Assembly: GCA_018669475.1 (NCBI GenBank)
Contig: JABHCC010000010.1
Span: 62,001 to 126,000 of the forward strand
Origin: Bacteroidota bacterium
GTDB lineage: Bacteria; Bacteroidota; Bacteroidia; Bacteroidales; UBA12481
Length of the DNA: 64,000 nt
Reading direction: 5' to 3'
The notes below the pieces were generated by a model that was given only the letters and a program-made list of their open reading frames with translations, had not been told where the DNA came from and searched no databases. How positions within the stretch are numbered: position 1 is the stretch's first letter; every line of letters begins with the position of its first letter. The translations under genes and the position numbers were made by a program. This document shows, in pieces, positions 47,821-57,938 of this stretch.

Positions 47821-47951
47821 TGTTGAATTTTACAACAGGTGTGTAACAATTCAACACCCCTTATTAAGGCGCTGAATGAAAGGTCATTGTACGGTTTTCA
47901 ATCGACTGGTGTTTAAGAATTCAACAGTCCTACTTGATGATTTATTCAACA
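47821..47951 (+). promoter_or_regulatory. Four 17-bp TGT-N11-ACA-type dyads upstream of the redox operon
   Basis: Sites at 47821-47837, 47840-47856, 47910-47926 and 47935-47951 each read TGNNN-N7-CAACA. The first is a perfect dyad TGTTG-AATTTTA-CAACA; the second (TGTGT) and third (TGTTT) keep TGT...ACA; the fourth is TGATG...CAACA. Start spacings are 19, 70 and 25 bases. They lie about 55-190 bases before a sigma-54-like promoter and resemble upstream activator sites of NtrC/NifA-type proteins. The operon itself encodes such an activator. Confidence 0.65.
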
Positions 47952-48003: not shown

Positions 48004-48020
48004 TTGGCATTAGATTTGAA
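48004..48020 (+). promoter_or_regulatory. Sigma-54-like promoter of the redox operon
   Basis: TTGGCATT-N4-TTGAA matches the -24/-12 consensus TTGGCACG-N4-TTGCW well at -24 and with correct 12-base GG-to-G spacing, but has A in place of the conserved C of the -12 GC. The same bases (TAGATTTG, 48011-48018) also match the housekeeping TANNTTTG box, although no TTG lies 17-23 bases upstream. The start would be near 48030, 40 bases before the ATG at 48072. Confidence 0.5.
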
Positions 48021-48071: not shown

Positions 48072-49772
48072 ATGAAAACACTATGCATTATTCTCTTCGG
48101 CTTTTTACTTCCATTGTGCGGCAGTTCACAGGTCATTCTCAATGACGAAACTGTTCCACAAAATTCACCTCTTATTAAGGGGAAAATTAACATCTTGAGT
48201 ACCCCGGATTTGCTCGATATAACAACAATATGGGCAAATAAATATGCCAGTTTAAATTCTCAATTAAAAATCACCGTATTAAGTTCGGCAATGAATAAAC
48301 CAGAGAAATTACTTCCTGCCGGCACTGACATTAGGATTATCTCAAGTGAAGATGAGGCTTTCCGATCTGATAAGAATTTGAGGAAAATTATAGTTGGGCG
48401 TGATATAATAGTACCGCTTATTAATTCGGAAAACCCATTTCTGGAAGCCATATACAAACAGGGTATATCAGCCGAAGAAATAGCCAGGGTCCTTTCCAAT
48501 CCAGATAAACAGACATGGGGAATGCTTTTGGGAAATGATGAACCAGCTCGTGTCAATTTATTTATAATTGATAATGAATCTGTGAGCTCCGATGTTGCGA
48601 ATTTCCTTAATACAGATAAGCTAAATGATGAGGGAATAAATGTGAAGTCAGGTCAGGAAATGATTGATGTGCTTCAGGGTGATCCGTATGCCCTGGGGTT
48701 TTGTAGAATGACAAATGTCCTGGACAATACAAAAAACAGCTTTCTTGATAAAATTACTCTTTTGCCTATTGATAAAAATGGGAATGGTATCATTGATTAT
48801 CCGGAAAAAATTTTCAGTAATTATGATACTTTCACCCGTGGTGTTTGGATAGGTAAATATCCTAAAACATTGTATCGTAACATTTATTCCTATTCTCAAG
48901 AGAATAAATCTAAGGAGGCTGTTGTTGCCTTTTTAAGATGGATTGTAACAAGTGGACAAGCGAGCCTGGCTTCATATGGTTATGACGATCTGGTTTACAG
49001 TGAGAGACTGGCTAATATTGATGCTCTGTTAATTAGTGGGGTCGATCCAAAATCACCAAACAGTATTTTCGCCGGCCAAAAATTATTAGCACTAATTATT
49101 GGACTATTCATCGTTACGGGGCTGGTAGTAAATATAATAGCAAGATTTGTGGCAAATAAGCAGGCTTCTGTTCAGTACGCCAGCTCTCTCTCGCAATCTG
49201 TTTTTGACCAAAATTCAGTAAAAATTTTGAATGGTCTGTATTTTGACAAAACCCATACATGGGCATTCATGGATCAAAACGGGGGTGTGAAGATTGGGAT
49301 TGACGATTTTCTCCAACATGTTACCGGACCAATTACACGTGTTAAAATGAAAATACCAGGTGAGAGAATAAATAAGGGAGATAAAATTATGTCTATCACT
49401 CAAAAGGGCAAGCAACTAAACATTTACTCCCCCATTTCCGGAATCATCAGGGAGCAAAACACGGCACTTAATAGTGATTCATCTGCTATGAATTCATCTC
49501 CTTACTCTGATGGTTGGGTGTACGTATTAGAGCCAACAAATTGGATAAAAGAGACTCAGCAATTAATCATGGCTAACAATTACAAAACCTGGCTTAAAAA
49601 TGAATTCTCACGCTTAAAAGATTTTCTTTCCGCCTCTCTGGGAAATAGAAATCCGGAGCATGGCCATCTTGTTCTCCAGGATGGTGGTGAACTTCAGGAT
49701 TGGGTTTTGGAAAAATGTGGACCTGAAGTTTGGGAGGATTTTCAAATCAACTTCATAGACACAAACAAATAA
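48072..49772 (+). CDS. Phosphate-binding-like periplasmic domain fused to a membrane helix and GcvH-like domain
   Basis: A 566-residue hybrid. Signal peptide at 1-20 (ATG 48072 chosen for this). Residues about 33-315 resemble a PstS/PBP-like-2 binding protein (KGKINILSTPDLLDITTIWANKY, GINVKSGQEMIDVLQGDPYALGF, KEAVVAFLRWIVTSGQASL) with a DKNGNGIID calcium-loop-like insert. A membrane helix (338-357) leads to a GcvH-like domain (about 388-490; LYFDKTHTWAF, IGIDDFLQHVTG, IYSPISG). At the lipoyl position the sequence is QKGKQL, so Gly446 replaces the usual Lys and Lys447 is shifted by one. A tail with LQDGGEL and VWEDFQ is shared with the gene at 51896. Substrate unknown. Confidence 0.82.
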   Translation: MKTLCIILFGFLLPLCGSSQVILNDETVPQNSPLIKGKINILSTPDLLDITTIWANKYASLNSQLKITVLSSAMNKPEKLLPAGTDIRIISSEDEAFRSDKNLRKIIVGRDIIVPLINSENPFLEAIYKQGISAEEIARVLSNPDKQTWGMLLGNDEPARVNLFIIDNESVSSDVANFLNTDKLNDEGINVKSGQEMIDVLQGDPYALGFCRMTNVLDNTKNSFLDKITLLPIDKNGNGIIDYPEKIFSNYDTFTRGVWIGKYPKTLYRNIYSYSQENKSKEAVVAFLRWIVTSGQASLASYGYDDLVYSERLANIDALLISGVDPKSPNSIFAGQKLLALIIGLFIVTGLVVNIIARFVANKQASVQYASSLSQSVFDQNSVKILNGLYFDKTHTWAFMDQNGGVKIGIDDFLQHVTGPITRVKMKIPGERINKGDKIMSITQKGKQLNIYSPISGIIREQNTALNSDSSAMNSSPYSDGWVYVLEPTNWIKETQQLIMANNYKTWLKNEFSRLKDFLSASLGNRNPEHGHLVLQDGGELQDWVLEKCGPEVWEDFQINFIDTNK

Positions 49773-49788
49773 AATCAAAAAGAATATT

Positions 49789-50661
49789 ATGAGCTTAGTT
49801 AGACGAGACTTCTTGAAAACACTCGGGCTGATAGGTGCTTCACTTACTGTGGGCAAAAGCCTTGGTGCCACAACGAAAAAGAAAAACAAAACAGAATTTT
49901 ATGGTGTGCTTATTGACACAACACGATGTGTAGGTTGCAGGGCATGTGAATGGTCATGTGCAGAGGCAAATGGACTGCCTGAACCTACAGAAGATGAAGG
50001 TGTAAAAATCAGAAAAACATCTGTAAGCAGATGGACAGCGGTTAGTGAATATGGAACAGAAGATAATCCTATTTATGTCAAGAAGCAGTGCATGCAATGT
50101 ATGCAGCCTGCTTGTGCATCTGCCTGTTTAACAAAAGCCATGAATAAAACAGATGAAGGACCTATTGTTTGGCGCGAGGATAAATGTATGGGATGCAGAT
50201 CATGTATGATTTCTTGCCCGTTCGATGTCCCTAAATTTGAATACGATAGCCCCAATCCAAAAATTCAAAAGTGTCAAATGTGCTTTGAAAGACTTGAAGA
50301 AGGCGGAGTTCCAGCTTGCGTGGAAAATTGTGGTGGAGATGCACTTCTTTTTGGTAAAAGAAAAGATCTCCTTGAAGTTGCCAGATCACGGATTTATAAT
50401 AATCCGGATGATTATTACCATCATGTTTATGGGGAGCATGAGGTTGGGGGAACCGGTGTACTTTATCTTTCGTCAGTTCCATTCGAACAATTAGGATTTA
50501 GAGAAGACCTGGGTACAACAGCTTATCCGGAATATAACAAGAATTTCCTCTATTCGGTTCCTGTTGTTCTGATTCTTTGGCCTGTTTTTTTACTCGGACT
50601 AAATAATTCCACTAAAGAAAATAAGAAGCTAAACGAGAAAAAAACGGATAACCATGGATAA
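49789..50661 (+). CDS. Tat-exported 4x[4Fe-4S] ferredoxin subunit (HybA/DmsB/NrfC-like)
   Basis: A 290-residue electron-transfer protein. The twin-arginine signal MSLVRRDFLKTLGLIGASL places it in the periplasm. Sixteen Cys residues form four clusters: C47-50-53-57, C101-104-109-113, C133-136-139-143, and C162-165-177-181. A C-terminal helix (SVPVVLILWPVFLLGL) anchors it to the membrane. In related complexes it shuttles electrons between a catalytic subunit and an NrfD-type quinone subunit. The NrfD gene overlaps its end by 8 bases, but no catalytic subunit is encoded nearby. Confidence 0.93.
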   Translation: MSLVRRDFLKTLGLIGASLTVGKSLGATTKKKNKTEFYGVLIDTTRCVGCRACEWSCAEANGLPEPTEDEGVKIRKTSVSRWTAVSEYGTEDNPIYVKKQCMQCMQPACASACLTKAMNKTDEGPIVWREDKCMGCRSCMISCPFDVPKFEYDSPNPKIQKCQMCFERLEEGGVPACVENCGGDALLFGKRKDLLEVARSRIYNNPDDYYHHVYGEHEVGGTGVLYLSSVPFEQLGFREDLGTTAYPEYNKNFLYSVPVVLILWPVFLLGLNNSTKENKKLNEKKTDNHG

Positions 50662-51877
50662 TACACGCGAAACAAGTTTTCTGAAATTCTTTCTCCAAGA
50701 ATTAAAACCAAAGGGGAAAATAATAACCCCTTTTAATGTCATCACGGTTATTATTGTCATTATTAGTGCAGTAATTCTGTTCTTTAGATTTACTAAAGGC
50801 TTAGGGTCTGTAATGGACGCGTCTCAAACCCGTCCCTGGGGCCTGTGGATTAATTTCAACGTAATAACAGGGGTAGCATTTGCAGGAGGGGCTTATGTGG
50901 TCACATTCATGGTTTATATTCTTGGTCTTGAGAAATATCGACCAATCGTGCGTCCGACAGTGCTATATGGTTTACTGGCCTACATGTTTTATGCTGGCGC
51001 TCTTTTGCTTGATTTAGGTCGCCCATGGAAAGTCATCAATCCGATAATTGGAAATTCTTTTGGATTAAGTTCAGTGCTTTTTCTGGTAGCATGGCATTTC
51101 ATTCTATACATGATAGCTGAGGTTATTGAGTTTGTTCCAACAATTGCAGAGTGGGCAAAATGGAAACGATTAAGAAAAATATTCCTGTCACTAAACCTGG
51201 CGGCAGTAATTTTTGGTATTGCACTATCCACTTTGCACCAATCCGGGCTTGGATCCCTTTTTTTAATGGCAAAAGCAAAAATTCATCCCTTATGGTATTC
51301 TGAGTTTATTCCAATTCTATTCTTTGTATCCAGTATTTTTGCAGGGCTTTCATTAGTTATAGTATCAGAATCCATTAGCCAGAAAGTATTTAAAAATATC
51401 ATGTCAACCTTGCATGTAAAATCTCACAAGAATATCATTATAAGTTTGGGTAAAATATGCGCAATAGCATTATTTGTATATTTCTCTCTTACTATTCTCG
51501 TTTTCATCCATGGGAAAAACTATTCATACCTTAATACACCCTGGGGGTATTGGTATCTTGTGGAAATAATAGGATTTGTTGTGACACCCTGTATGGTTTT
51601 CCTATTCGGATTCAGGTTAAACAATATCAGATTAGTTAGAATTGCTGCAATAATGAGCATAATAGGCATTATTTTAAATAGAATGAATATTTCAACCATT
51701 GCCTACCAATGGTATGAAAATTCACTGCATTTTCCATCCTGGATGGAACTTATAGTAAGTATAGCTGTAATTCTTGTACAGATCATGGTATTCAGGTGGA
51801 TTGCCAGAAGAATGCCTGTATTTAACGAGTCTCCAGCATGGGTAAAAGTAAAAAAAGGCATAAAACTAGTTGCTTAA
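50654..51877 (+). CDS. NrfD/HybB-family quinone-interacting membrane subunit
   Basis: A 407-residue inner-membrane protein with about ten hydrophobic helices. Family marks are PWGLWINFNVITGVAFAGGAYVV near residue 56, RPTVLYGLLAYMFYAGALLLDLGRPWKV, and STLHQSGLGSLFLMA near 195, as in HybB. Such subunits exchange electrons and protons with menaquinone for the ferredoxin partner. The ATG lies 8 bases inside the end of the ferredoxin gene, so translation is probably coupled. Confidence 0.93.
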   Translation: MDNTRETSFLKFFLQELKPKGKIITPFNVITVIIVIISAVILFFRFTKGLGSVMDASQTRPWGLWINFNVITGVAFAGGAYVVTFMVYILGLEKYRPIVRPTVLYGLLAYMFYAGALLLDLGRPWKVINPIIGNSFGLSSVLFLVAWHFILYMIAEVIEFVPTIAEWAKWKRLRKIFLSLNLAAVIFGIALSTLHQSGLGSLFLMAKAKIHPLWYSEFIPILFFVSSIFAGLSLVIVSESISQKVFKNIMSTLHVKSHKNIIISLGKICAIALFVYFSLTILVFIHGKNYSYLNTPWGYWYLVEIIGFVVTPCMVFLFGFRLNNIRLVRIAAIMSIIGIILNRMNISTIAYQWYENSLHFPSWMELIVSIAVILVQIMVFRWIARRMPVFNESPAWVKVKKGIKLVA

Positions 51878-51895
51878 CAATTAAAAACATATAAA

Positions 51896-52612
51896 ATGGA
51901 AAGTTTTAGCACTATCGATATTTTTGACACAAAAGGAATAGAGTATTTATTTATTATTGGATATTTATTTCTACTGATCGCATTCTGGAGGTTTGCGATA
52001 AAACCTGTTCGAATTACCAGCCAGATTAAAAAGGTGATAGGTATACTTACTGAAAGTGTCTTGCAAATCCCTCAAGGTTTGTTTTACAGTAAAAATCACA
52101 CATGGACTCATATGGAACCGTCTGGAGTAGCAAATGTAGGCTTGGATGATCTACTGCACCATATTACCGGAGACATAAAATTCCATAAGCTTATTGAGCC
52201 TGGTGGCGAAATTCATAAAGGTGAATTACTGACAGAAATTTATCATCAAGGCAAAATGCTGAAAATATCAGCTCCAATATCTGGTCAAATTATCCAAGTC
52301 AATCCTTTACTTAATGATAATCAGCTAATAGGAAGTGAGGATACATACGGAAAATTCTGGGTCTACAAAATCAAACCAAATAATTGGATTGCTGAAACCA
52401 GTTCCTATTATTTCGCTGATGATGCAACAACATGGATTAATAAGGAATTAAGCAGATTTAAAGACTTTCTTGCTAAGTCAATCCCTAAACACTCACCACA
52501 AACTTCACTGTTTGCTCTTCAGGATGGTGGTGAACTTAGAGATAACACTTTGTCAGAACTACCAGACGGTGTATGGACTGATTTTCAGCAAGATTTTCTA
52601 AATGATATTTGA
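51896..52612 (+). CDS. Membrane-anchored GcvH-like protein
   Basis: A 238-residue paralogue of the C-terminal half of the 48072 product. One N-terminal helix (17-36) anchors a GcvH-like domain (about 58-163; GLFYSKNHTWTHM, NVGLDDLLHHITGDI, ISAPISGQIIQVN). In glycine cleavage H protein the lipoyl Lys lies 8 residues before the Pro of APVSG. Here that place is Gly119 and Lys120 is one residue later, as in the paralogue. The tail (183-238) repeats the RxKDFL...LQDGGEL...VWxDFQ pattern. The domain may be a carrier with altered modification, or a structural domain only. Confidence 0.85.
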   Translation: MESFSTIDIFDTKGIEYLFIIGYLFLLIAFWRFAIKPVRITSQIKKVIGILTESVLQIPQGLFYSKNHTWTHMEPSGVANVGLDDLLHHITGDIKFHKLIEPGGEIHKGELLTEIYHQGKMLKISAPISGQIIQVNPLLNDNQLIGSEDTYGKFWVYKIKPNNWIAETSSYYFADDATTWINKELSRFKDFLAKSIPKHSPQTSLFALQDGGELRDNTLSELPDGVWTDFQQDFLNDI

Positions 52613-52706
52613 AAAACCCAACGGCAGGACATATTCTTTGTTTTTCATAACTTGGCGAAAACAAAAAGCTACCTTGTGTTATAAAACATGAGTAAATAAA
52701 CAATAA

Positions 52707-54383
52707 ATGGCTGATTCTGAAGATAAGACACTAAACCACAGAAATGAGGGCTCATTTCGCAGTAAACTTTATAAGTTCCAGTCTTCAATATATGGACATG
52801 TAGTTTTCATTATAAGCGCCTTGTCTATTATTCTTTTTCTGTCGTTTGGTGTTATATTCAGATCAGTAAATGAGAGACATTTGGATACCATTATCCGGCA
52901 AAACGGAAATAATATTGGTTCAATTGTTGAGGGAGCCTTGTATTATTCCATGCTCAAAAACGACAGAAGCTCATTACAAAACACACTGGATGTGATTAAT
53001 ACGATGCCTGGCATCCTGGATGTAAACATGTATGATCCACAAGATAAGCTTGTTTATTCATCTTTTTCTTCTGACACAAGCGGGCACAACAATCCGCATT
53101 GCAAAGACTGTCATCTGGATATTGATACCATGTTTCCAAGAAAAGAGAGATCTTTTAGAATCATAAATATGGATAGTGATCTTAATATGAGTCTGAATAA
53201 TTTTGATAACCGGCTACTATTAATCAGATCGCCTATCCTGAATGAACCATCATGCTATACAAGCTCTTGTCATGCACATAGTCAAGATGATGAAGTGCTT
53301 GGTTCTCTGAATATTAGGATGCCTCTTAAGGAGATTGATGATGCAGTCCTTGAGTCTTCTACAGATTTTTTCCTAATGGCCACATTATCAACTATACTAT
53401 TTGTATTAATTCTGGTGTTTTTTACAAGAAGAAAAATTAATAAACCATTAAATGCTATAATTAAAGCCAGTGAAGCTGTTTCGAAAGGTGATAAAAAGAT
53501 GCGATTGGAGATAAAGCCCAAACAGCTGTATGATATCAGGATGGTTTCCTCTGCTTTTAATGAAATGCTGGATAACATTCAGTCTGCAACAAACGAATTG
53601 CAAAACTGGTCACAACAACTTGAATATAAGGTCCAGAAAAAATCAGAGGAATTATCAGAAATGCAGAATGAGATAATACATATCGAACGAATAGCTTCAC
53701 TTGGTAAATTATCCTCTTCTGTCGCTCATGAAATAAACAATCCTTTATCGGGAGTTTTGACTTATACAAAACTGGTTCAAAAATTATTGAGTAAGCCTGA
53801 ATTAAGTAATACTTCCAAGGTATCGATGATGAAATATTTGGAGGTGATTGAAGCAGAAACGAAACGATGTGGAGATATAGTGAAGGGCTTATTAGATTTT
53901 TCGAGAAAAGATCAGCTGGATTTTAGAACCAAGCATTTGCATAAAATTTTAGGTGATGCATTTTCCTTGATGGAACACCAAATGAAAATAGCAAACATTA
54001 ATTTCTCTGCTGATTTTTCTGCAAATTCAGATCTAATTTTTTGCAGTGAGAACCAAATAAAGCAGGCATGTATAGCGATATTGCTAAATGCCTGTGAAGC
54101 TGTTACAGAAAATGGAGAAATTATAATGAAAACCAGCAATCCGGATATGGCCAACATAAAACTTGAAATATCCGATAACGGTGTTGGTATTGCCCCGGAA
54201 GACATTCCTCACGTTTTTGAACCATTTTTCTCAGCAAAACAGAAAGTAGCAGGTACAGGTTTAGGCCTTGCTGTTGTGCATGGTATAGTTCAAAGCCATA
54301 AAGGCAAAGTAGAGGCTGTGTCTGAGTTTGAGGCCCACACATGTATTTCCATAACATTACCATTGAACAATAATGAATCATAA
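52707..54383 (+). CDS. Histidine kinase with haem-type periplasmic sensor, copy 1
   Basis: A 558-residue membrane sensor kinase. Helices at about 31-52 and 222-240 bracket a periplasmic domain containing CKDCH (Cys132, Cys135, His136; CxxCH) and CYTSSCH (Cys183, Cys188, His189; Cx4CH), which suggests covalent c-type haem, with the second motif non-standard. HAMP (241-295), HisKA with His341 in SSVAHEINNPLSGV, and HATPase (DNGVGIAPEDIPHVFEPFF, GTGLGLAVVHGIVQ) follow, the NtrB-like class. Its stop overlaps the start of the next, paralogous kinase by 11 bases. Confidence 0.9.
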   Translation: MADSEDKTLNHRNEGSFRSKLYKFQSSIYGHVVFIISALSIILFLSFGVIFRSVNERHLDTIIRQNGNNIGSIVEGALYYSMLKNDRSSLQNTLDVINTMPGILDVNMYDPQDKLVYSSFSSDTSGHNNPHCKDCHLDIDTMFPRKERSFRIINMDSDLNMSLNNFDNRLLLIRSPILNEPSCYTSSCHAHSQDDEVLGSLNIRMPLKEIDDAVLESSTDFFLMATLSTILFVLILVFFTRRKINKPLNAIIKASEAVSKGDKKMRLEIKPKQLYDIRMVSSAFNEMLDNIQSATNELQNWSQQLEYKVQKKSEELSEMQNEIIHIERIASLGKLSSSVAHEINNPLSGVLTYTKLVQKLLSKPELSNTSKVSMMKYLEVIEAETKRCGDIVKGLLDFSRKDQLDFRTKHLHKILGDAFSLMEHQMKIANINFSADFSANSDLIFCSENQIKQACIAILLNACEAVTENGEIIMKTSNPDMANIKLEISDNGVGIAPEDIPHVFEPFFSAKQKVAGTGLGLAVVHGIVQSHKGKVEAVSEFEAHTCISITLPLNNNES

Positions 54384-56007
54384 TGCAATTTTCTCCACAT
54401 TACTGAAACATTTAAAATTCAGATCATCGATATATAGTCAGGTCGTTATTATTATTGCTATTCTGTGTATTTTTCTGTTATTAACATTTGGAGCCATATT
54501 CGAATCTGTTAATAAGGAATACATGGAAAGCAATATTCAGCAGAGTGGTAACAACGTGGGTTTACTTGTGGAGGGAGCCTTGTATCAACACATGCTTGAA
54601 AATGATAAAACTGCAATTAATAATACGCTGCAGATAATTAACACCATGCCTGGAATTTTAGATGTAAATATGTATGATCACGCGGATAATCTTGTTTATT
54701 CATCATTTCCTGTGGACACAAACCTGCAAAACAATCCAAATTGTAAAGAGTGCCATACGAATATTGATATCATGTTCCCAGGAAAAGAAAAGACTTTCAG
54801 AATCATAAATATGGATAGTAAATGCAATATGAGTCTGAAAAATTATGATAATCGTGTTCTTTTAATCAGGGCTCCAATTCTGAACGAACCATCCTGCTAT
54901 ACCAGCGCCTGTCATGCACATAAGGAAACTGATGAAGTACTTGGCTCTTTTGTAATTAGAATCCCATTGGAAGAACTTGACAAGAATCTTAAAAAGTCTG
55001 TCCTGTTAGCAATATTCACTACGCTTATACTTATGAGTTTTTTAATGATTTTCACAAGAAGAAAAATTAAAAAGCCACTAAATGCAATTCTTGCAGCCAG
55101 TGAAGCTGTATCAAAAGGTGATATTAGGTCAAGGTTAGAAATAAAACCGAATCAATTAAGTGATGTGAGAGTGGTTTCTTCTGCATTTAATGAAATGCTG
55201 GATAATCTTCAATTAGCCACAAACGAACTTCAAAACTGGTCACAACAGCTTGAATATAAAGTCCAGAAGAAGTCAGAGGAGATCTCAGAAATGCAAAATG
55301 AATTAATCCATGTTGAACGAATAGCCTCACTTGGTAAATTATCATCTTCCGTTGCTCATGAAATCAATAATCCTTTATCGGGGGTTTTGACCTATACCAA
55401 GCTAGTCCAAAAGAAATTACGCAGACATATGTCTGATAACCCTGCAAAAGAGTCGATGTTAGAGTATTTGAAAGTTATAGAAATAGAAACGAAGCGATGT
55501 GGCGATATAGTTAAAGGCTTGTTGGAGTTCTCAATAAAGGACCAACAGGATTTTGAAGAACTGAATTTGCATATAATATTAGAAAAAGCATATTCCCTTT
55601 TGGCCCATCAGATGAAAATGTTGAACATTAGTTTTCAAGCTGACTTTTCTGCTAAATCAGATTTAATATTCTGCAGTGAGAATCAGATAAAACAGGCGTG
55701 TATTGCCATTCTTTTAAATGCATCTGAAGCAGTAATAGAAAACGGCGATATTATGATGAGAACAAGTAACCCTGGAAAAGATACTATTAAGCTTGAGATA
55801 ATAGATAATGGGCAAGGAATTTCCCCCGAAGATATTCCGCATATTTTTGAACCCTTTTTCTCGGCCAAACAAAAAGTAAGTGGTACTGGGTTGGGATTGG
55901 CAATTGTACACGGCATCGTTCAAAGCCACAAGGGAAAAGTTGATGTAGAATCTACATTGGGGGAGAGCACAATCATTTCTTTAACCTTACCTTTAGTGAA
56001 GAATTAG
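54373..56007 (+). CDS. Histidine kinase with haem-type periplasmic sensor, copy 2
   Basis: A 544-residue paralogue of the preceding kinase with the same layout. Helices lie at about 22-43 and 209-227. Periplasmic CKECH (Cys124, Cys127, His128) and CYTSACH (Cys175, Cys180, His181) are conserved. HAMP, His329 in SSVAHEINNPLSG, and an ATPase domain with GTGLGLAIVHGIVQ follow. It starts 11 bases inside copy 1. Both cytoplasmic halves are very similar, so they may heterodimerise or compete for the same response regulator encoded 24 bases downstream. Confidence 0.9.
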   Translation: MNHNAIFSTLLKHLKFRSSIYSQVVIIIAILCIFLLLTFGAIFESVNKEYMESNIQQSGNNVGLLVEGALYQHMLENDKTAINNTLQIINTMPGILDVNMYDHADNLVYSSFPVDTNLQNNPNCKECHTNIDIMFPGKEKTFRIINMDSKCNMSLKNYDNRVLLIRAPILNEPSCYTSACHAHKETDEVLGSFVIRIPLEELDKNLKKSVLLAIFTTLILMSFLMIFTRRKIKKPLNAILAASEAVSKGDIRSRLEIKPNQLSDVRVVSSAFNEMLDNLQLATNELQNWSQQLEYKVQKKSEEISEMQNELIHVERIASLGKLSSSVAHEINNPLSGVLTYTKLVQKKLRRHMSDNPAKESMLEYLKVIEIETKRCGDIVKGLLEFSIKDQQDFEELNLHIILEKAYSLLAHQMKMLNISFQADFSAKSDLIFCSENQIKQACIAILLNASEAVIENGDIMMRTSNPGKDTIKLEIIDNGQGISPEDIPHIFEPFFSAKQKVSGTGLGLAIVHGIVQSHKGKVDVESTLGESTIISLTLPLVKN

Positions 56008-56031
56008 GATATAAAAACAAGAGAACGTATT

Positions 56032-57372
56032 ATGCTAAGCTCCGTTTCAATATTAATCGTTGACGATGAAGAATCCGTACGAGATTCTTTATATAACTGG
56101 TTCATCGATGATGGATACCAAGTTGACTGTGCTGAAAACGCAAAACAGGCACTTACAATTCTGGAATCTAAGAATTATGACATTATTCTGGCAGATATTA
56201 AGATGCCCGGTATGGATGGACTGGAAATGCATCAAAGGATAAAATCATTAAATAATGACTCAATTGTCATTATTATGACAGCATTTGCCTCTGTGTCAAC
56301 GGCCGTTCAGGCTTTAAAAGACGGGGCATATGATTATATAACGAAACCCTTTGATCCTGACGATCTTTCACATTTGATAAGAAATGCAGCTAGCCAAATT
56401 TCTTTAAAAGCTGAAAATGAAGCCCTTAGGGACAAAGTTGTTACTCTGGAAAATGTGGAAAACATCATCGGTAGCAGTAAGGCAATGCTGAAGGTTCTCA
56501 AAGAAGTTGAAAAAGTGGCTCAATCTAATTCCCCTGTTATCATAACTGGAGAAAGTGGCACTGGTAAAGAGCTTGTTGCCAAGGCAATACATTCAAACTC
56601 CCATCGTAAGTTCTTCCCTTTAGTTAGTGTGCATTGCGGAGCTTTGACTGAAAGTCTACTGGAAAGCGAGTTATTCGGTCACGAAAAGGGTGCTTTTACC
56701 GGTGCAATGTTTAACCGGAAAGGACGGTTTGAAATGGCAGATGGCGGAACAATATTTCTTGATGAAATCGCCACTATTTCTTTGAAAATGCAGATAGAAT
56801 TGCTCCGTGTGCTACAAACAAAAACTTTTATAAGGGTTGGTGGTAATAAGGAAATCACTTCCGACTTCAGGGTTATTTGTGCCACAAACAAAGATCTGAT
56901 GCAAATGGTGGAAATGGGAGCTTTTCGAGAAGACCTGTACTACCGGTTGAATGTTGTAAATATTACTGTTCCACCACTTCGCGAAAGAAATGATGATATT
57001 CCATTGCTAGTCGAGCATTTCATTGATAAATATTGTACTTCAATGAGCAGGGATACTATTCCAATTAATCCTCGAGCAATGAAACAGCTAAAAGAAAGCT
57101 ATTTCCCCGGGAATGTTCGTGAGCTTGAAAACATAATTGAGCGGGCAATTGTAATAGGCAACGATAAGGAAATATGCGTAAAAGACCTACCTTATCAGAA
57201 AGAAACTATCAGCAGTTCAATTGAAAGCCTGGAAGACCTCGAAAAAACACACCTACTCCAAATACTTAATAAATACAATTGGAATATTTCCCGATCAGCA
57301 AAAGCACTCAAAATAGACAGAGTAACCCTATACAATAAAATAAAGAAATACAAATTAAAAACTTCAAATTAA
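56032..57372 (+). CDS. NtrC-family sigma-54-dependent response regulator
   Basis: A 446-residue activator with three domains. The receiver (1-120) has DDEE (11-14), Asp55 and Lys105. The AAA+ domain has Walker A GESGTGKE (173-180), the sigma-54 contact loop GAFTGA (220-225), and Walker B IFLDEI (241-246). A Fis-type helix-turn-helix lies at about 415-445 (NWNISRSAKALKIDRVTLYNKIKKY). It probably receives phosphate from one or both haem-motif kinases encoded immediately upstream and activates the operon from the dyads at 47821-47951. Confidence 0.95.
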   Translation: MLSSVSILIVDDEESVRDSLYNWFIDDGYQVDCAENAKQALTILESKNYDIILADIKMPGMDGLEMHQRIKSLNNDSIVIIMTAFASVSTAVQALKDGAYDYITKPFDPDDLSHLIRNAASQISLKAENEALRDKVVTLENVENIIGSSKAMLKVLKEVEKVAQSNSPVIITGESGTGKELVAKAIHSNSHRKFFPLVSVHCGALTESLLESELFGHEKGAFTGAMFNRKGRFEMADGGTIFLDEIATISLKMQIELLRVLQTKTFIRVGGNKEITSDFRVICATNKDLMQMVEMGAFREDLYYRLNVVNITVPPLRERNDDIPLLVEHFIDKYCTSMSRDTIPINPRAMKQLKESYFPGNVRELENIIERAIVIGNDKEICVKDLPYQKETISSSIESLEDLEKTHLLQILNKYNWNISRSAKALKIDRVTLYNKIKKYKLKTSN

Positions 57373-57404: not shown

Positions 57405-57938
57405 TTGAATAAGCAAAGTATATTATTAATTTCTCATGGAAATTTCGAGAAGGTGTTTCTTGAAAAGATAGCTAAAGATATATCACACGAATTTCTTTAT
57501 CCGGTTTACCTCGAAGAAAGTAGTATAGACATAAGTGATTTTTATGATCCAATGCGGAGGCAATACGATGGCAACAGGCTATTGATTGAAATAAATTCTT
57601 TCACCTCACCAGGATTTACTAAAAAAGTCGGATTATTCCGGGTAGATTTATTTATTCCCATACTAACATATATTTTTGGACAAGCCACTTTCAAAGGAAG
57701 TTCCGGGCTTGCATCCCTCTACAGACTTAGAAACGAACAATATGGCATGCCAAAGGATGACATTGTGCTCCTTAATCGTTTTAAAAAAGTAATTATCCAT
57801 GAGCTGGGTCATACCCTGGGATTAATACACTGTCATATTCCAAGCTGTGTAATGAGGTCAAGTACATACGTTGAAGATATTGATCAAAAAAGCCACAATC
57901 TGTGTATCAACTGTCGAACTAAGATAGGAATGGTTTAG
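57405..57938 (+). CDS. Archaemetzincin-family zinc metalloprotease
   Basis: A 177-residue metzincin. The extended zinc site HELGHTLGLIH (132-142) is followed by Cys143, Cys148, a Met in SCVM, and a final CxxC (167-170), the archaemetzincin (AmzA) pattern with a structural second zinc. The start is TTG 57405 (MNKQSILLISHGNF), since no ATG is suitably placed. The open frame follows the NtrC gene by 32 bases and appears to close the operon. Family substrates are mostly unknown, and a redox-operon context is unusual. Confidence 0.88.
   Translation: MNKQSILLISHGNFEKVFLEKIAKDISHEFLYPVYLEESSIDISDFYDPMRRQYDGNRLLIEINSFTSPGFTKKVGLFRVDLFIPILTYIFGQATFKGSSGLASLYRLRNEQYGMPKDDIVLLNRFKKVIIHELGHTLGLIHCHIPSCVMRSSTYVEDIDQKSHNLCINCRTKIGMV

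What the first reader, a model, noticed from the sequence alone, without database searches (positions are those of the whole stretch)
49379..52330. GcvH-like domains whose lipoyl lysine is replaced or shifted
Both carrier-like domains keep the H-protein frame (HTW, VGLDD/IGIDD, PISG) but have Gly where the lipoyl Lys should be (446 and 119), with Lys one residue later (447 and 120). The shared pattern G-K-x-L-x-I-x-[SA]-P-I-S-G in two paralogues argues for selection, not decay. They may carry a different cofactor, be lipoylated at a shifted site, or act as structural docking domains.
Basis: partly seen in the sequence, partly recalled or inferred. Interest (0 to 1): 0.7.

Follow-up and report, generated by a model that had tools for sequence, protein, structure and literature searches.

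The report
Unlipoylated H-protein domains in redox-sensing operon
Two copies of a protein domain that normally carries the cofactor lipoic acid have lost the attachment site throughout a large bacterial family and now belong to a conserved membrane electron-transfer and signalling operon, where they most likely act as docking or signal-passing parts rather than as cofactor carriers.

Summary
Two ORFs (48072-49772, 51896-52612) end in GcvH-fold domains with Gly where H-protein has its lipoyl Lys, and Lys one residue later. All 31 true GcvHs aligned have Lys there and Glu three residues before. In orthologues the site is Gly in 69/75 and 58/77, followed by Lys (66/75, 60/77) or Arg; G446-K447 is invariant in 50/50 upstream orthologues. 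Predicted models put a two-residue turn at the site, with Lys opening the return strand. Published lipoyl domains with a lysine one place off are not lipoylated there (PMC6270654).

The domains belong to a six-gene operon conserved in anaerobic Bacteroidales and several other phyla: PstS-like/TM/GcvH-like, HmcB-like, HmcC-like, TM/GcvH-like, diheme-motif kinase(s), sigma-54 regulator. It has a conserved sigma-54 promoter and palindromic upstream sites, hence probably autoregulated. In variant loci the same domain is fused to an intact receiver. Best reading: non-lipoylated docking/relay domains tying an Hmc-like electron-transfer module to a two-component system. Shifted lipoylation is unlikely but untested. 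Docking and electron flow are inferred. No description was found in the literature searched.

The parts
47821..47951 (.). four 17-bp palindromes TGTTGAAnnnTTCAACA (starts 47821, 47840, 47910, 47935; 1-2 mismatches each), putative enhancer sites of the operon's NtrC-type regulator
   Evidence: half-sites occur 102 times upstream of 50/57 orthologous operons against about 9 expected; the only cluster of such sites in the window
48005..48020 (+). putative sigma-54 promoter TGGCATTAGATTTGAA
   Evidence: exact match to TGGCAYN5TTGM; 50/57 orthologous upstream regions within 2 mismatches, about 5 expected
48072..49772 (+). protein A (566 aa): signal peptide, PstS-like periplasmic domain, one TM helix (338-356), GcvH-like domain, C-terminal extension with DGG motif
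48771..48806 (+). EF-hand-like loop DKNGNGIIDYPE (residues 234-245) in the PstS-like domain; D234, N236 and E245 invariant in 50 orthologues
49236..49601 (+). GcvH-like domain A
   Evidence: Pfam GCV_H 81 bits; Foldseek 1onl
49407..49412 (+). Gly446-Lys447: Gly at the canonical lipoyl-lysine position, Lys one residue later
49789..50661 (+). HmcB/HybA-like 4Fe-4S protein with Tat signal (RRDFLK) and C-terminal membrane anchor
   Evidence: NCBIfam HmcB 326 bits, cut-off 420; anchor residues 253-271
50654..51877 (+). HmcC/HybB/NrfD-like membrane protein
   Evidence: NCBIfam HmcC 379 bits, cut-off 550; Pfam NrfD; only copy of this subfamily in the genome
51896..52612 (+). protein B (238 aa): N-terminal TM helix, GcvH-like domain, DGG extension
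52082..52387 (+). GcvH-like domain B
   Evidence: Pfam GCV_H 60 bits
52250..52255 (+). Gly119-Lys120: Gly at the canonical lipoyl-lysine position, Lys one residue later
52707..54383 (+). sensor histidine kinase 1; the periplasmic region holds CxxCH (C132-H136) and CX4CH (C183-H189) heme-attachment motifs
   Evidence: CxxCH in 91/91 and CX4CH in 87/91 homologues
54373..56007 (+). sensor histidine kinase 2, paralogue of kinase 1 with the same two motifs
56032..57372 (+). NtrC-type sigma-54-dependent response regulator (receiver, AAA+ with GAFTGA, Fis-type HTH)

Best explanation
The two domains are H-protein folds that no longer carry lipoate. They are dedicated cytoplasmic parts of a conserved operon that joins an Hmc-like electron-transfer pair to a two-component system. 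Predicted layout: the PstS-like domain, the Tat-exported HmcB-like 4Fe-4S protein and the kinases' diheme domains lie in the periplasm; HmcC spans the membrane; the two GcvH-like domains, the kinase cores and the regulator lie in the cytoplasm. Proposed working: HmcC/HmcB exchange electrons with the quinone pool; the kinase hemes read that flow; the GcvH-like domains, through their rigid tight-turn face with a basic residue, dock HmcC to the signalling proteins; the phosphorylated regulator turns on the operon at its sigma-54 promoter. Shown here: fold, loss of the lipoyl Lys, conservation, operon membership, heme motifs, promoter motifs, receiver-GcvH fusions in related loci. Inferred: absence of lipoate, topology, docking, electron route, autoregulation.
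For: Canonical Lys position: K in 31/31 true GcvHs, G in both window domains and in most orthologues, with Lys or Arg next. The Glu at -3 is in 31/31 true GcvHs and absent in the window domains. True GcvHs form one side of a 0.98-supported split, and the genome has its own true GcvH. The models place a two-residue turn at 445-446 and 118-119. Moved-lysine lipoyl domains are not lipoylated (PMC6270654). Among loci with enough flank, GcvH-like genes lie upstream of HmcBC in 66/68 and downstream in 74/74, the diheme-motif kinase in 52/54, the regulator in 53/54. Pfam confirms Response_reg + GCV_H in single proteins of related loci. Palindromes and sigma-54 promoter are conserved.
Against: K447 is strictly invariant in 50 Bacteroidales-type orthologues, so a modification of that Lys in this clade is not excluded. 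A few relatives have Lys at the canonical position (e.g. L046, L058, L066). No complex was modelled, so docking to HmcC or the kinase is a guess from gene order and fusions. Electron flow from HmcB to the kinase hemes is not shown. The module could be an ordinary respiratory complex with its regulator beside it.
Confidence: 0.6

Rival explanations
1. The domains are lipoylated (or octanoylated) at the shifted lysine K447/K120 and act as redox or acyl swinging arms for the HmcBC module, like LbpA in sulfur oxidation.
For: K447 invariant in 50/50 orthologues; fold closest to H-protein; LbpA is a precedent for GcvH-like carriers in redox pathways (PMC6067878).
Against: Arg or other residues replace the +1 Lys in other clades; lysines moved by one are not lipoylated (PMC6270654); Glu at -3 missing; predicted turn has no lysine at the tip position; no lipoate ligase near the locus, whereas LbpA has a linked ligase, a strictly conserved Lys and usually two conserved Cys.
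Confidence: 0.06
2. HmcB-HmcC with the GcvH-like subunits is simply a respiratory electron-transfer complex; the kinase and regulator only control its expression, and the GcvH-like domains are structural subunits without signalling role.
For: HmcBC and HybAB-type pairs are known respiratory modules (PMC10924467); palindromes and sigma-54 promoter point to control of the operon itself.
Against: Receiver domains are fused to the GcvH-like domain in variant loci. No catalytic subunit or multiheme cytochrome was seen among the window operon genes, although neighbours outside the reference set were not annotated in the relatives.
Confidence: 0.27
3. The domains are decaying GcvH copies with no function.
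For: Loss of the one residue essential to GcvH function.
Against: Intact frames, invariant residues and fixed gene order across about 75 species; conserved C-terminal extension beyond the GcvH domain.
Confidence: 0.02

Closest known systems
Glycine cleavage H-protein (GcvH; Pfam PF01597, NCBIfam TIGR00527)
   Same: Fold, HxW, P-x-S-G and PYxxGW frame; Foldseek top hits
   Different: No Lys at the hairpin tip, no Glu at -3; membrane-anchored; extra about 75-residue C-terminal extension with DGG; below the gcvH equivalog cut-off (72 and 58 bits vs 115.85); separate clade
LbpA lipoate-binding proteins of Hdr-like sulfur oxidation (PMC6067878)
   Same: GcvH-like domain recruited to a redox system
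   Different: LbpA keeps a strictly conserved lipoyl Lys, usually two conserved Cys, and a linked ligase; here none of these
Hmc complex of Desulfovibrio (HmcB, HmcC)
   Same: HmcB-like tail-anchored Fe-S protein next to HmcC-like NrfD-family protein; these NCBIfam models score best
   Different: Scores below the equivalog cut-offs; no HmcA, E or F gene among the window operon genes; GcvH-like proteins, diheme-motif kinases and NtrC-type regulator instead
Non-lipoylated barrel-sandwich domains of redox complexes (NqrA N-terminal domain)
   Same: Barrel-sandwich hybrid fold in a redox complex; weak Pfam NQRA_N match in receiver-GcvH fusions
   Different: Match is below cut-off; the H-protein fold is clearly closer

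Membership tests
Glycine cleavage H-protein | GcvH fold | tested here: met
Glycine cleavage H-protein | lipoyl Lys at the hairpin tip | tested here: not met
   Gly in both window domains, Lys in 31/31 true GcvHs
Glycine cleavage H-protein | passes the NCBIfam gcvH cut-off | tested here: not met
   72 and 58 bits vs 115.85
Glycine cleavage H-protein | lipoylated and shuttles the methylamine group between GcvP, GcvT and the dehydrogenase | not testable with these tools
   needs protein chemistry; the genome has a separate true GcvH
LbpA | strictly conserved lipoyl Lys | tested here: not met
   definition from PMC6067878
LbpA | linked lipoate-protein ligase | tested here: not met
   LplA/LipB-type hits only on contigs C53 and C142; the window is on C214
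Hmc complex | HmcB and HmcC subunits over the equivalog cut-off | tested here: not met
   326 of 420 and 379 of 550 bits: related, not equivalog
Hmc complex | HmcA 16-heme cytochrome in the operon | tested here: not met
   no such ORF among the operon genes 48072-57372
Two-component system with c-heme sensor | HisKA/HATPase core, periplasmic heme-attachment motifs, partner regulator | tested here: met
   (motifs only; heme binding not shown)

The most novel reading that the evidence does not exclude
The unlipoylated GcvH fold is a new kind of signalling output and coupling domain: in its membrane-anchored and receiver-fused forms it acts as a clutch on the HmcC quinone protein, so that a two-component system reads and gates transmembrane electron flow directly at the protein level as well as through transcription.
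Probability: 0.22. Interest if true: 0.8.

Novelty: new variant of a known kind. Interest (0 to 1): 0.6.

Why it matters
Proteins of this family match Pfam as glycine cleavage H-proteins, which can mislead metabolic reconstruction of anaerobic Bacteroidales. If the reading is right, a classical cofactor carrier has been turned into a cofactor-free protein-protein module and tied to a widespread redox-sensing operon for which I found no description, and it also appears fused to response-regulator receivers. The autoregulatory promoter and the sharply defined GK motif make the idea directly testable.

Tried and rejected
Viral-contig scan with HmcC: no relatives. A genome scan with the diverse GcvH-like alignment failed for lack of conserved stretches, so HmcC was used instead. 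Pseudogene or decay reading rejected on conservation. Dedicated nearby lipoate ligase: none. Other regulon targets of the palindrome in the genome: 64 sites against 24 for the control pattern, no second cluster among the places listed (the list was cut). Literature searches found no description of this operon or of receiver-GcvH fusions; most subscription papers are not in the library. The attempt to pull out the genome's own GcvH read the wrong strand; it was redone. Laying the whole genome in the script box was not available.

Full report
OBSERVATION. The window holds two ORFs that end in GcvH-fold domains. Protein B is 51896-52612, 238 aa. Pfam GCV_H scores 81 and 60 bits against a cut-off of 22. 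In ungapped PDB alignments of B the lipoyl Lys of 1onl and 3a8i stands opposite Gly119.

MORE THAN CHANCE. The only named-genome scan (query: the HmcC-like protein of this locus) gave 80 loci. In 75 upstream (A) and 77 downstream (B) orthologous domains the canonical site is Gly in 69 and 58; the next residue is Lys in 66 and 60, Arg in 7 and 8. In 50 PstS-fused A orthologues G446 and K447 are invariant at 43% mean column identity. More distant members have G, N or D at the site and R, K, N or G after it; Lys at the canonical site is rare. What is conserved across the family is a tight turn with, usually, a basic residue after it, not a lysine as such.

STRUCTURE. AlphaFold models (mean pLDDT 87.9 for B, 83.2 for A; about 95 around the B hairpin) end one strand at 117 or 444 and begin the next at 120 or 447, leaving a two-residue turn at 118-119 or 445-446. 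Lys is the first residue of the return strand, not the tip. Foldseek best matches are H-proteins (1onl, TM 0.88-0.91 by target length) and, for the N-terminal part of A, PstS-type binding proteins; a profile search agrees. A review of lipoyl-domain mutants reports that only the correctly placed Lys is lipoylated: an added Lys at the next position was not modified, and a Lys moved one position back with the original removed was not modified (PMC6270654). By analogy the window lysines should not be lipoylated; this was not tested.

CONTEXT. Between the two genes lie an HmcB/HybA-like Tat-exported 4Fe-4S protein with a C-terminal anchor and an HmcC/NrfD-like membrane protein; after them come two paralogous sensor kinases and an NtrC-type regulator with GAFTGA. 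The kinase sensor regions carry CxxCH (91/91 homologues) and CX4CH (87/91). In named loci with enough flanking sequence, a GcvH-like gene is upstream of HmcBC in 66/68 and downstream in 74/74, a diheme-motif kinase is present in 52/54 and the regulator in 53/54. The records are mostly MAGs titled Bacteroidales or Bacteroidetes, with Prolixibacteraceae, Draconibacterium and Marinilabiliales, and also Gemmatimonadota, Krumholzibacteriia, Deltaproteobacteria, Lentisphaerae and a Solirubrobacteraceae MAG. That most are anaerobes is my inference from these groups. A phylum-wide draw of genomes shows the same operon in more distant relatives. About a third of good genomes in the window's order hold a protein matching A at 1e-20, though some of these matches cover only its binding-protein part.

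RECEIVER FUSIONS. In variant loci (L049, L053, L055-L058) HmcBC is followed by a kinase and by proteins that join a receiver domain to the GcvH-like domain: Response_reg 79-109 bits and GCV_H 52-75 bits in one chain for the five proteins scanned. The receivers keep the DD, D and K residues as read by eye. Some have the same kind of N-terminal TM anchor as A and B, so the receiver sits between anchor and GcvH-like domain. In several other loci the downstream GcvH-like protein is soluble and has an N-terminal Cys motif CxWM[DE]AGVxxYKLCDxxFxCExCxFD.

PROMOTER. Upstream of protein A lie four palindromes TGTTGAAnnnTTCAACA (47821-47951) and a sigma-54-like site TGGCATTAGATTTGAA (48005-48020). Half-sites occur 102 times in 50 of 57 upstream regions (the window's included) against about 9 expected; half-site spacing 3 dominates. 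Sigma-54-like sites within two mismatches occur in 50/57 against about 5 expected. No second cluster was seen in the window or among the listed genome places. Autoregulation by the adjacent regulator is the simplest inference.

MECHANISM. Predicted topology puts the PstS-like domain, HmcB and the heme region outside, and the GcvH-like domains, kinase cores and regulator inside. I propose that HmcC/HmcB exchange electrons with the quinone pool, the kinase hemes read this, and the GcvH-like domains dock the electron-transfer pair to the signalling proteins. The fusions support a signalling link; docking itself and the electron route are inferred. A plain respiratory complex with its own regulator is the main rival.

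NOVELTY. The parts are known; the combination, the loss of the lipoyl site across a whole clade, and the use of the domain with receivers were not found in the literature searches of an open-access library, which cannot prove novelty. LbpA (PMC6067878) is the closest precedent and differs in the cofactor-related features tested. I file this as a new variant of a known kind.

Noticed in passing
48771-48806: The PstS-like domain of protein A holds an EF-hand-like loop (DKNGNGIIDYPE) whose D234, N236 and E245 are invariant in 50 orthologues; the PstS phosphate-binding loops I remember (GSG, SGT) are not evident, so the ligand may not be phosphate.
   Followed up: partly
L049:15628-17652, L053:13037-15044, L056, L057, L058: Receiver domains fused to GcvH-like domains, in pairs, next to HmcBC-like genes and a heme-motif kinase.
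   Followed up: partly
L041:6535-7401, L042:6552-7403, L052:12493-13353: Soluble GcvH-like proteins downstream of HmcC with a conserved N-terminal Cys-rich motif that could bind a metal or Fe-S cluster.
   Followed up: no
52707-56007; L061, L062, L063: The window and its three closest named relatives have two paralogous diheme-motif kinases in tandem; most other loci have one.
   Followed up: no
57405-57938: Archaemetzincin-type metalloprotease gene directly after the regulator (NCBIfam 146 bits, just over the cut-off).
   Followed up: no
L064:1-15395: One Deltaproteobacteria MAG locus carries a second, opposite-strand HmcB/HmcC/GcvH-like/RR set beside the main one; its HmcC ORF is long (809 aa) and has three CxxCH motifs.
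   Followed up: no
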